From: an uncultured Flavobacteriales bacterium
GTDB lineage: Bacteria; Bacteroidota; Bacteroidia; Flavobacteriales_E; Vicingaceae
Direction of reading: 5' to 3'
Length of the DNA stretch: 64,000 bases
NCBI GenBank assembly: GCA_905479325.1
Contig: CAJQLW010000019.1
Span: 1-64,000 of the forward strand
Shown piece after piece: positions 4,224 to 6,770 of this stretch. The first letter of the stretch is position 1, and each line of letters begins with the position of its first letter. A program made the position numbers and the translations under genes. The notes below the pieces were generated by a model. It searched no databases and had not been told where the DNA came from. It worked only from the letters and a program-made list of their open reading frames with translations.

Positions 4224-4339
4224 TTCAAACAACTTATTCACCTGAAAAACAACGGCAAACAACCGAAACAGTTTTTTCACATTATTCACCCTGAAAGCCA
4301 CCAGAGAAAAGAATCAAAAGAGTATGTCATTTTGTAAAG

Positions 4340-4478
4340 CTAGTTTGTCACTCTGAATGTTCTTTCGAAAAACAAGAAAAAAGAACTAAACCAGTTTGTT
4401 GTGTTATACAACTAGTTTGTCACATTGAGCGTTCTTTGGAGCTTGCGGAAAAGAACTGGTCGAAATGTAGACAAACTA
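4340..4478. repeat. dispersed intergenic repeat, two direct units and one inverted unit
   Basis: A 26-nt unit starting CTAGTTTGTCAC occurs at 4340-4365 and 4412-4437 (22 of 26 identical, 72-base period), and an inverted form AATGTAGACAAACTA lies at 4464-4478, touching the trpG stop. Together they can fold into a stem. The inverted form recurs at about 42776-42788. The rest of the 4224-4475 gap shows no gene. Confidence 0.55.
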
Positions 4479-5054
4479 CCCATTCTCAACCAACCAATTC
4501 CCCAACATCTCCTTCCCCATTTCGGTCAAAACACTTTCCGGATGAAATTGCACCGCACAAATGGGCAGCGTATTATGCTGAATCGACATGATATTTCCCT
4601 CTTCATCGGTAGATGTAATGTTAAAATCTGTGTGCATGCTCTCTGGGTCGATGACCCAAGAATGGTAACGCCCTACTTTTATGCTTTTCGGAAGGTCTTT
4701 AAATAGCCCTTTTTCTCGTTCTATAATCTCAATGCTTCTTGCTTGTCCGTGCACGACTTTCGGAAGGTTATTCAACTTCATTCCAAAATGCTCGGCAATG
4801 GCTTGTTGGCCCAAGCAAACCCCTAAAATGGGAATTTTTGTAGCGTACCGTTCTAAAAACTCCATCAGCTTACCGGCTTGTTTCGGTAATCCAGGGCCTG
4901 GTGAAAGCACCACCAAATCGTAGTCTAACACGCCATTTAAATCGAGTTCGTCGTTGCGTTGCACCTCAACTCCACCTTGGTTCAATTCGTCCAAATAATG
5001 GTACAAATTAAAGGTGAAAGAATCGTAATTGTCGATGAGGAGAATTTGGGGCAT
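4476..5054 (-). CDS. trpG/pabA: anthranilate / 4-amino-4-deoxychorismate synthase glutamine amidotransferase subunit
   Basis: Class I glutamine amidotransferase of 192 residues that releases ammonia from glutamine for anthranilate (tryptophan) or aminodeoxychorismate (folate) synthesis by a partner subunit. Visible marks are NYDSFTFNLYHYL at the N-terminus, the oxyanion segment SPGPGLP (51-57), nucleophile Cys80 in GVCLGQQ and the His171/Glu173 pair in VQFHPES. No trpE or pabB partner is in the window; trpG and pabA cannot be told apart here. Its ATG overlaps the toxin stop codon (TAATG), so it is now translated behind the toxin-antitoxin pair, and its first 84 bases are duplicated at 5701-5784 upstream of that pair. 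Confidence 0.9.
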   Translation of the reverse strand: MPQILLIDNYDSFTFNLYHYLDELNQGGVEVQRNDELDLNGVLDYDLVVLSPGPGLPKQAGKLMEFLERYATKIPILGVCLGQQAIAEHFGMKLNNLPKVVHGQARSIEIIEREKGLFKDLPKSIKVGRYHSWVIDPESMHTDFNITSTDEEGNIMSIQHNTLPICAVQFHPESVLTEMGKEMLGNWLVENG

Positions 5055-5380
5055 TAACTTCTTTTTTTTAGCAATTCTACTAGCGTTGATGGTTTCTGTC
5101 TATTGTCCCAAAAAGCAACAATAATTATTGATGACTGCGCTTTTTTATAATAAATAGAATAATTTCCTAAAGCTGACTTTCGAATTTCAGAAATACTTGT
5201 TTTAAGGGCAGAAGCGGGGTATTTCGATAACTGTTTAGTTTTCTCTGAGACCTTGTCCAACAGCCGTTCGGAATATGTCGTTGTTGCATTTCGTTCTATC
5301 CAGAACTCTAAAATATGTTGCAACTGGCTCTTCGCCAAAAACGTCCATGTTACAGTTAAGCTTTTTTCGAGTTCAGCCAT
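5054..5380 (-). CDS. type II toxin of the RelE/ParE superfamily
   Basis: 108 residues with the RelE/ParE pattern: a helical hairpin (FLAKSQLQHILEFWIER, about 14-30), a basic middle and a C-terminal strand IIIVAFWDNRQKP. Members are either ribosome-dependent mRNases or gyrase poisons; which one cannot be read from sequence. The start overlaps the antitoxin gene by 25 bases and the stop overlaps the trpG start by one base. The pair is inserted exactly at the trpG start, see the remnant at 5674-5784. Confidence 0.8.
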   Translation of the reverse strand: MAELEKSLTVTWTFLAKSQLQHILEFWIERNATTTYSERLLDKVSEKTKQLSKYPASALKTSISEIRKSALGNYSIYYKKAQSSIIIVAFWDNRQKPSTLVELLKKRS

Positions 5381-5586
5381 TTCTTTGCATCATACATTAC
5401 TTTTTCTTCAGAAACAACGTTTCCCAATTTAATGTCCTCTTCTCCTGCTGAAATCATCTGCTTTTCTAGCTCAGTTAATTCCACTGTCTTTGTGTTTAAT
5501 ATTAATTCTATTGATTCCAAAACAGACTCATCCTCTATAGATCGAATCTTTTGAATGATATCAGATTTCAATTGGGTTAAGCTCAT
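5356..5586 (-). CDS. antitoxin partner of the RelE/ParE-type toxin
   Basis: 76 residues, acidic and helical, with an N-terminal segment (LTQLKSDIIQKIRSIED) typical of antitoxins paired with ParE/RelE toxins in Bacteroidota and a C-terminal tail ending in Lys/Trp residues that would wrap the toxin. It precedes and overlaps the toxin gene, the usual order. By family it should neutralise the toxin and repress the operon; no operator is evident by eye. Confidence 0.75.
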   Translation of the reverse strand: MSLTQLKSDIIQKIRSIEDESVLESIELILNTKTVELTELEKQMISAGEEDIKLGNVVSEEKVMYDAKKWLNSKKA

Positions 5587-5673
5587 GAGGTTTTGTTTTA
5601 TTTTAAAATTAGGCCTTTTTTAGGTGATAGAAATGTTTTACGGCATAGTATAAAAATTAGTCAAACCGTTTCA

Positions 5674-5784
5674 TCATTCAAGAAATCGCTGCATCTTTGT
5701 CCCGCCTTGGTTCAACTCGTCTAAATAATGGTATAAGTTGTAGGTGAATGAATCGTAATTGTCGATGAGGAGAATTTGGGGCAT
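5674..5784 (-). pseudogene. orphan 5' fragment of trpG/pabA
   Basis: A 36-codon open frame whose first 28 codons match the intact trpG at 4476-5054: 75 of 84 bases are the same, the first 35 are identical, and all differences but one (Phe15 to Tyr) are silent. After Gly28 the reading runs into unrelated sequence and a TGA. It sits nine bases behind the stop of the DUF1648-like gene, which looks like the ancestral operon position of trpG. The 645 bases between the two copies hold the toxin-antitoxin pair. The silent divergence implies that the copies came from different lineages or have diverged under selection. Confidence 0.75.
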
Positions 5785-5793
5785 TGATGGTAC

Positions 5794-6141
5794 TTATTTC
5801 TTTGCCAATTTAGCCCAATAAATTACAATAGCAACTCCTAAAACGCCCAATAACACAAACAACGGCCAAGGGTCTTGATCTTCCATTCCAACTAATGCAT
5901 TGTTCACCGATGTAATGGTTAAACTGAAAAAAATAGAACTCACCACCAAATTAACCACCCGAATAAACTGAGCTGAAAGCTTCCACTTCTCTTCTTTATT
6001 TTCTTCTATAAGGGTAGTGGGCATATTGTGCGCCTGCGGAAAAAGTGCCAGCACCACCAAGCCGGCATACAACACGGTTGCGATTCCTTGCACCAAAAAC
6101 AACTCGTTCTTGCTTCCAAAGCGGTCTGCCTCGCCCTGCAA
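5794..6141 (-). pseudogene. 5'-truncated DUF1648-like membrane protein gene
   Basis: The readable part (115 codons from a TTG) begins QGEADRFGSK, which is the middle of the DUF1648 signature normally written HFN-x-x-GEADRFGSK, and continues with three hydrophobic segments. In frame upstream of the TTG the codons still read WVHFNLQ, but no ATG occurs before a stop about 35 bases further on, and the expected first membrane helix is missing. I infer loss of the 5' end. The truncated start lies within about 100 bases of tRNA-Cys. A functional short protein starting at TTG or ATT is the alternative. Confidence 0.55.
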
Positions 6142-6245
6142 ATTAAAATGAACCCAAATATTAAATTTTACATATTCAAATATAATTTAAAATATTCTTT
6201 TTGGGTAAATGTGGTGTGTAATGTGGTGTAGTTCCTTAAACCAAA

Positions 6246-6419: not shown

Positions 6420-6770
6420 CTATTCCTCTATAACAATGCTCACCTTTTCAATAGTAGGTTTTATGGGAGGGTTTAGCTTGCTTATTTTAAGCCGAATAAA
6501 CTGAATGCTGTCGAAGTTAGCGTATAAGGCATTTACAATTCTTTGCCCCACGTGTTCAATTAATTTTGAAGGAATCATCATCTCTTGTTCCACCATTCGG
6601 TACACTGCTGAATAATCAATGGTTCCTTCTAAAACATCGTTCTTTGCACTTTCGCTGAAGTCAGTTTCGAGCTCGATGTTTACCTCAAACTTACCACCAA
6701 CAATGGTTTCCTCTTCAAAAACCCCGTGATGCGCATGAAATATGGCATTTTCAATCAACACTTTATGCAT
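6420..6770 (-). CDS. folB: dihydroneopterin aldolase
   Basis: Cleaves 7,8-dihydroneopterin to 6-hydroxymethyl-7,8-dihydropterin and glycolaldehyde in folate synthesis; forms a cytoplasmic octamer. The 116 residues show the family marks HAHHGVFEEE near the N-terminus, the acidic middle strand FEVNIELETDF, LIEHVGQRIVNAL with the conserved Glu-His, and a final strand with the pterin-binding lysine-rich segment KISKLNPP. The ATG overlaps the gltX stop (TAATG), so the two genes are translationally coupled. Confidence 0.9.
   Translation of the reverse strand: MHKVLIENAIFHAHHGVFEEETIVGGKFEVNIELETDFSESAKNDVLEGTIDYSAVYRMVEQEMMIPSKLIEHVGQRIVNALYANFDSIQFIRLKISKLNPPIKPTIEKVSIVIEE

What the first reader, a model, noticed from the sequence alone, without database searches (positions are those of the whole stretch)
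4970..5785. Toxin-antitoxin cassette inserted at the trpG start and flanked by a diverged copy of the trpG 5' end
The first 84 bases of trpG (4971-5054) are repeated at 5701-5784 with 75 identical; eight of nine changes are silent, and both copies begin at the ATG. Between them lies a 645-bp segment with antitoxin and toxin genes whose last stop overlaps the trpG start (TAATG). The outer copy is in the ancestral operon position and is truncated after 28 codons. The simplest model is a mobile TA cassette that brought its own trpG 5' end from another strain, so the gene was rebuilt on insertion and now depends on the TA transcript. That would be a target-restoring, recombinase-free way of moving, and the essential-type neighbour would help maintain it.
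Basis: partly seen in the sequence, partly recalled or inferred. Interest (0 to 1): 0.75.

Follow-up and report, generated by a model that had tools for sequence, protein, structure and literature searches.

The report
Toxin-antitoxin genes wedged into trpG start
A toxin-antitoxin gene pair sits exactly at the start of a tryptophan (or folate) synthesis gene, and the leftover start of the gene's older version still lies beyond it; the scar most likely records DNA from a related bacterium being pasted in with one matching end and one non-matching end, and a different genus carries a similar scar with another inserted gene at the same spot.

Summary
In detail: 75 of 84 bases of the trpG 5' end recur upstream, with a ParE-type toxin-antitoxin pair between the copies and the toxin stop overlapping the trpG start. 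Two corrections: clear homology runs 33 codons, not 28, and traces may reach codon 56; the upstream DUF1648 gene is itself a 5'-truncated remnant. Congener G003 has DUF1648 directly abutting trpG, with no TA and no stub. No full trpG paralogue start occurs in the family. A second genus (G010) shows the same layout with unrelated cargo: a DUF1801 gene between a 19-codon trpG stub and intact trpG. G012 has another, degenerate TA before trpG without a stub. Differences between stub and intact copy are mostly silent, so the copies probably diverged as working alleles before being joined. Best explanation: homology-facilitated illegitimate recombination. Incoming [cargo-trpG 5' part] recombined homologously within trpG and joined illegitimately in the recipient's trpG, leaving its start as a stub. 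It is a known kind of recombination product in a neat new setting.

The parts
4476..5054 (-). intact trpG/pabA (glutamine amidotransferase subunit of anthranilate or aminodeoxychorismate synthase), 192 aa
   Evidence: PF00117 3.5e-49; TIGR00566 trpG_papA 187.7 bits over cut-off 121; best relatives 78/76/73% in congeners
4957..5055 (-). inner copy of the repeated trpG 5' end (part of the intact gene)
   Evidence: the repeat finder D1
5054..5380 (-). ParE/RelE-type toxin, 108 aa; stop codon overlaps the trpG ATG (TAATG)
   Evidence: PF05016 ParE_toxin 29.5 bits over cut-off 23; 47-51% to toxins in G013
5356..5586 (-). antitoxin, 76 aa, overlapping the toxin start by 25 nt; no Pfam or NCBIfam family, identified by position and resemblance to the partner ORFs of sister TA loci
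5614..5685 (-). probable decayed continuation of the outer trpG copy (codons ~34-56, with indels), between the stub and the antitoxin start
   Evidence: anchored alignment to 41 trpG genes, P=0.001 vs shuffles; post hoc, unanchored test P=0.22
5686..5785 (-). outer copy (stub): trpG codons 1-33 plus one base before the ATG, then frame lost
5794..6153 (-). 3' remnant of a DUF1648 membrane-protein gene (aa ~45-165 of the G003 homologue), ancestral upstream neighbour of trpG in this genus
   Evidence: 52% to the full-length G003 gene, which has PF07853 47.5 bits
6290..6361 (-). tRNA-Cys(GCA), conserved left border of the variable interval
6420..6770 (-). folB, conserved neighbour of tRNA-Cys in relatives
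   Evidence: PF02152 5.7e-29

Best explanation
A fossil of homology-facilitated illegitimate recombination. DNA from a related bacterium, carrying [antitoxin-toxin-trpG 5' part], entered the cell. Inside trpG it recombined homologously with the resident gene, which rebuilt a complete trpG whose start is the donor's allele. At the other end it was joined without homology inside the resident trpG, leaving the resident's first 33 or more codons, still attached to the DUF1648 remnant, as a dead stub that then began to decay. Shown: the architecture, the TA-free and stub-free congener state, the recurrence with other cargo in another genus, and the silent-biased divergence. Inferred: the route (transformation or other), the direction (donor versus resident), the crossover point, and that trpG is now translated in coupling with the toxin gene.
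For: Congener G003: DUF1648 abuts trpG with no TA and no stub. G010, another genus: trpG stub (27 nt + 19 codons, 87%) - DUF1801 gene - intact trpG. G012: degenerate TA directly before trpG with no stub, i.e. a donor-like state. None of the other family genomes and none of 80 named loci shows a stub; in the class sample none was seen adjacent to trpG, but that table was truncated. A mirror-image case in G012: 3' end of a nitrilase gene copied behind a two-gene insert, 93%, 6 of 7 changed codons silent. Silent bias against a model of neutral stub plus constrained gene: P=0.0075 (G000, 33 codons), 0.012 (G010), 0.011 (G012 nitrilase). At the 9 differing sites, four of five congeners are closer to the stub (23 matches vs 8; G004 goes the other way). 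comEC and dprA are present in G000, G010 and G012 (also present in non-competent species). HFIR with one homologous and one illegitimate end is documented (PMC3240628) and has been invoked for T6SS immunity arrays (PMC5361080).
Against: No donor genome with this TA next to trpG was found. Junction microhomology cannot be examined without the donor. The crossover inside trpG leaves no clear mosaic signal. If the stub really extends to codon 56 in decayed form, it is odd that codons 1-28 kept almost only silent changes. Stub lengths are short, so each silent-bias test is modest. The genome is a fragmented assembly.
Confidence: 0.62

Rival explanations
1. Tandem or xenologous duplication of the whole trpG gene, followed by decay of the outer copy and an independent TA insertion that removed its 3' part.
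For: Possible decayed homology of the outer copy up to about codon 56; divergence accrued under protein-level constraint.
Against: No family genome has two adjacent trpG genes; it needs three events; the toxin stop abuts the inner ATG with no leftover of the outer 3' end; the same layout with other cargo occurs in G010.
Confidence: 0.17
2. Insertion with long target duplication, as proposed for restriction-modification genes: the TA entered with a ~100-bp copy of the target, and the copies diverged in place.
For: Repeat length and single-copy empty site fit; TAs elsewhere in G012 are flanked by long direct repeats.
Against: An unconstrained stub should collect mostly amino-acid changes; the observed silent excess is unlikely in three cases.
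Confidence: 0.1
3. A site-specific mobile cassette with an attachment site in the trpG 5' end, moved by a recombinase supplied in trans.
For: Two genera hit at the same gene start, and the target gene is restored.
Against: No recombinase in the interval; the G000 copies share a 36-nt identical block but the G010 copies share only ~14 nt, and stub ends differ (codon 33 or more vs codon 19); cargo types are unrelated; no TA homologue in viral contigs.
Confidence: 0.06
4. Assembly chimera or strain mixture in a metagenome-derived genome.
For: Assembly of 96 contigs, 92% complete.
Against: The locus lies inside a 101.6-kb contig, the copies share no long identical stretch, both ends join expected neighbours, and an independent genome shows the same design.
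Confidence: 0.03

Closest known systems
Homology-facilitated illegitimate recombination (Streptococcus pneumoniae, Acinetobacter baylyi, Pseudomonas stutzeri; rare in E. coli, PMC3240628)
   Same: One homologous end, one non-homologous joint, foreign DNA inserted together with loss of some resident sequence, no recombinase
   Different: Here it is inferred from a natural fossil in uncultured Bacteroidota; the homologous anchor is a housekeeping gene and the resident gene start remains as a stub
T6SS effector-immunity displacement and orphan immunity arrays (PMC5361080); Rhs orphan tips
   Same: An incoming module recombines at a conserved anchor and pushes the resident piece aside as a remnant; toxin plus antidote cargo
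   Different: The remnant here is the start of a metabolic gene, not an immunity gene or toxin tip; no evident benefit of keeping it
Minimal mobile elements of Neisseria (term found in the literature; concept recalled)
   Same: Variable gene content between conserved neighbours (tRNA-Cys and trpG), exchangeable by homologous recombination without mobility genes
   Different: Shown here between species and genera, not strains; stubs show illegitimate joints rather than clean exchange
Insertion with long target duplication of restriction-modification genes (Nobusato/Kobayashi, recalled; cited in papers)
   Same: Gene pair flanked by ~100-bp direct repeats of host sequence
   Different: Copies here are diverged in a silent-biased way, so they were probably not made by copying the target at insertion

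Membership tests
Homology-facilitated illegitimate recombination product | One end joined within homologous sequence | tested here: met
   Intact trpG is complete and its 5' end is a silent-diverged allele of the stub
Homology-facilitated illegitimate recombination product | Other end a non-homologous joint, often with 3-10 bp microhomology | tested here: inconclusive
   The joint lies between the trpG stub and the antitoxin 5' region, but no donor is known and the edge is decayed
Homology-facilitated illegitimate recombination product | Coupled loss of resident sequence | tested here: met
   The remainder of the stub gene is absent between stub and TA
Homology-facilitated illegitimate recombination product | RecA dependence during DNA uptake | not testable with these tools
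   Needs a cultured strain
Minimal mobile element | Different genes between the same conserved flanks in different genomes | tested here: met
   tRNA-Cys to trpG distance 38-58 nt in 5 genomes, 328-1621 nt with differing contents in 8
Minimal mobile element | Exchange among strains of one species by homologous recombination in the flanks | not testable with these tools
   One genome per species held
Insertion with long target duplication | Flanking copies identical at insertion, so later divergence is not protein-constrained | tested here: not met
   Silent excess P=0.0075 to 0.012 in each of three cases
Insertion with long target duplication | Single-copy empty site in a relative | tested here: met
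   G003
ParE-type (RelE/ParE superfamily) type II toxin-antitoxin system | Toxin matches the ParE_toxin family | tested here: met
   PF05016 29.5 bits, cut-off 23
ParE-type (RelE/ParE superfamily) type II toxin-antitoxin system | Small upstream antitoxin gene in the same operon | tested here: met
   Overlapping 76-aa ORF, no family match; sister loci have the same two-ORF layout
ParE-type (RelE/ParE superfamily) type II toxin-antitoxin system | Toxicity and neutralisation | not testable with these tools
   Needs expression assay

The most novel reading that the evidence does not exclude
The trpG start (tRNA-Cys to trpG interval) is a recurrent docking site in this family, where small gene cassettes are exchanged between species as [cargo + trpG 5' end] units, each time re-wiring trpG expression to the newcomer; with a TA as cargo, trpG output would come under toxin-antitoxin autoregulation.
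Probability: 0.15. Interest if true: 0.7.

Novelty: new member of a known kind. Interest (0 to 1): 0.42.

Why it matters
Single small genes and TA pairs move between bacteria without visible mobility genes, and how they do so is mostly inferred. A silently diverged stub of the neighbouring gene is a readable scar: it marks which side recombined homologously and which side was joined illegitimately, and argues that the joined alleles came from two lineages. Two independent scars at the same gene start with different cargo, and a mirror-image one at a gene end, suggest the scar can be searched for genome-wide to measure this route in uncultured bacteria.

Tried and rejected
Full trpG paralogue upstream: none in the family. 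Second 5' hits in the class sample: on other contigs or far apart, not stubs beside trpG. TA-specific mobility: in G012 and G010 several TAs are flanked by long repeats, but those repeats are non-coding, and some resemble a cassette array, so they are a separate matter. Unanchored local alignment of the stub extension gave P=0.22; only the anchored test gave P=0.001. Sliding identity along inner trpG gave no clear crossover point. Downstream neighbour of the G012 nitrilase was not conserved in relatives, so its stub's ancestral position could not be confirmed. Toxin homologues in viral contigs: none; plasmids: one weak match. PADLOC: none. The hotspot claim is weak: with roughly one stub per thousand genes, one further hit at trpG among 45 genomes has a chance of about 5% (my estimate).

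Full report
WHAT IS THERE. On the minus strand the order is gltX, folB, tRNA-Cys, DUF1648 remnant, trpG stub, antitoxin, toxin, trpG. The stub matches the start of trpG at 75 of 84 bases, 85% over 99 bases. It is the only direct repeat of its kind in the window. The toxin carries a ParE_toxin domain (29.5 bits against a cut-off of 23). The antitoxin has no named family, but the same two-ORF layout recurs in sister loci. The toxin stop and the trpG start share TAATG.

CORRECTIONS TO THE OBSERVATION. The outer copy does not end at codon 28. Codons 29-33 align but include three replacements. The next bases begin, after seven inserted bases, with AATGATGAA, the usual N-D-E codons of trpG, and a TCACC falls close to where the S-P codons of the SPGP motif are expected. 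An anchored alignment to trpG of 41 genomes beats shuffles (P=0.001). This is a post hoc test, and an unanchored one is not significant (P=0.22). The outer copy may therefore be a decaying remnant of a longer piece. The DUF1648 gene upstream is also truncated: only residues 45-165 of the 165-aa G003 gene remain. In G001 and G002 its homologue is likewise reduced to a 3' part, with other break points.

THE ANCESTRAL STATE. In congener G003 a full DUF1648 gene abuts trpG with no TA and no stub. In five other genomes of the family trpG lies 38-58 bases behind tRNA-Cys. In eight, including this one, the gap is 328-1621 bases and holds different things: DUF1648 parts, TAs, a DUF1801 gene, or non-coding repeats.

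RECURRENCE. Searching the trpG start in the family found a second start copy in only two genomes, G000 and G010. In G010, 27 bases before trpG and its first 19 codons (87% identical) stand before a DUF1801 gene (PF08818, 37.3 bits), which is followed by intact trpG. G012 has a TA of the same broad family directly before trpG, apparently frame-shifted in the toxin, and no stub. That toxin is 35% identical to the window's, while G013's toxins, elsewhere in that genome, are 47-51%, so the two trpG-adjacent TAs are probably independent arrivals. In the class sample no stub adjacent to trpG was seen, but the match table was cut and only genomes with two hits were re-examined. A scan of 1564 genes in about 2 Mb of G000, G010 and G012 found one more clean gene-end copy: in G012 the last 33 codons of a nitrilase recur behind an insert of two genes with secretion-tail domains.

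TEST OF HOW THE COPIES DIVERGED. If the stub arose by copying the target at insertion, it would have been free of protein constraint since then, and most differences should change amino acids. I simulated this with a constrained intact gene and a neutral stub. Observed silent codons: 9 of 13 in G000 (7 of 8 in the first 28 codons), 6 of 8 in G010, 6 of 7 in the G012 nitrilase. The simulation gives P=0.0075 (0.0015 for the 28-codon stretch), 0.012 and 0.011. The copies therefore probably diverged mostly while both were working genes, that is, in different lineages or as full paralogues. No paralogue was found in any relative.

WHICH COPY IS NATIVE. At the nine differing sites, G003, G001, G002 and G005 match the stub more often than the inner copy (23 to 8 in sum), while G004, G012 and G006 favour the inner copy. 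Together with the stub's attachment to DUF1648 this suggests that the stub is the resident allele and the inner 5' end the newcomer. The evidence is weak, and no crossover point is visible inside trpG.

MECHANISM. The simplest single event is homology-facilitated illegitimate recombination: incoming [TA - trpG 5' part] recombines homologously within trpG and is joined without homology inside the resident gene's start. It needs no recombinase, restores the gene, leaves the resident start as a stub, and works for any cargo lying before trpG in the donor. The reaction is described in three naturally competent species and rarely in E. coli (PMC3240628), has been proposed for many small variable segments (PMC2884548) and for displaced immunity genes in Vibrio T6SS clusters (PMC5361080). 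comEC and dprA are present here, but such genes also occur in non-competent species. The donor, the junction microhomology and RecA dependence could not be tested.

Right: an insertion that brought its own trpG start, target restoration without a recombinase, and the outer copy in the ancestral position. Over-read: a TA that moves as a dedicated cassette, and maintenance by the essential neighbour. G010 shows that the cargo need not be a TA.

VERDICT. A well-preserved recombination scar: a new member of a known kind, made more interesting by its recurrence at one gene in two genera and by the silent-divergence test, which can be applied genome-wide.

Noticed in passing
L135:64-2567 (G012) and L212:279-1356 (G010): HigBA-like TA pairs in two genera are flanked by imperfect direct repeats of one family (59 nt, 97% identical between genera, containing TTTACCATTCAAGGCACACACA), spaced about 1 kb: possibly a cassette array.
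   Followed up: partly
L151:12503-13549, L152:16244-17275, L153:10539-12050, L137:13750-16476 (G012): ParE-type TA loci or remnants lie between long direct repeats (68 nt 91%, 127 nt 100% at a contig end, ~150 nt 88%, 132 nt 85%), unlike most other loci of the genome.
   Followed up: partly
L032:671-1513 (G013): TA genes lie between repeats ending in GTGTTAGGC that look like integron attC sites.
   Followed up: no
window 5794-6153; L045, L046: DUF1648 beside trpG is 5'-truncated at different points in three congeners, as if only its 3' end (next to trpG) is kept.
   Followed up: partly
L147:8863-12306 (G012): Mirror-image scar: intact nitrilase gene, two inserted genes with Por secretion tails, then a silent-diverged copy of the nitrilase's last 33 codons.
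   Followed up: partly
L144:7635-8128 (G012): A small ORF resembling a GIY-YIG nuclease (by eye, no family search run) sits between two copies of what looks like a tRNA 3' end plus its terminator, with a second copy of the ORF start.
   Followed up: no
window 4300-4440: Two 69-nt imperfect tandem copies (74%) behind trpG containing CTAGTTTGTCAC.
   Followed up: no
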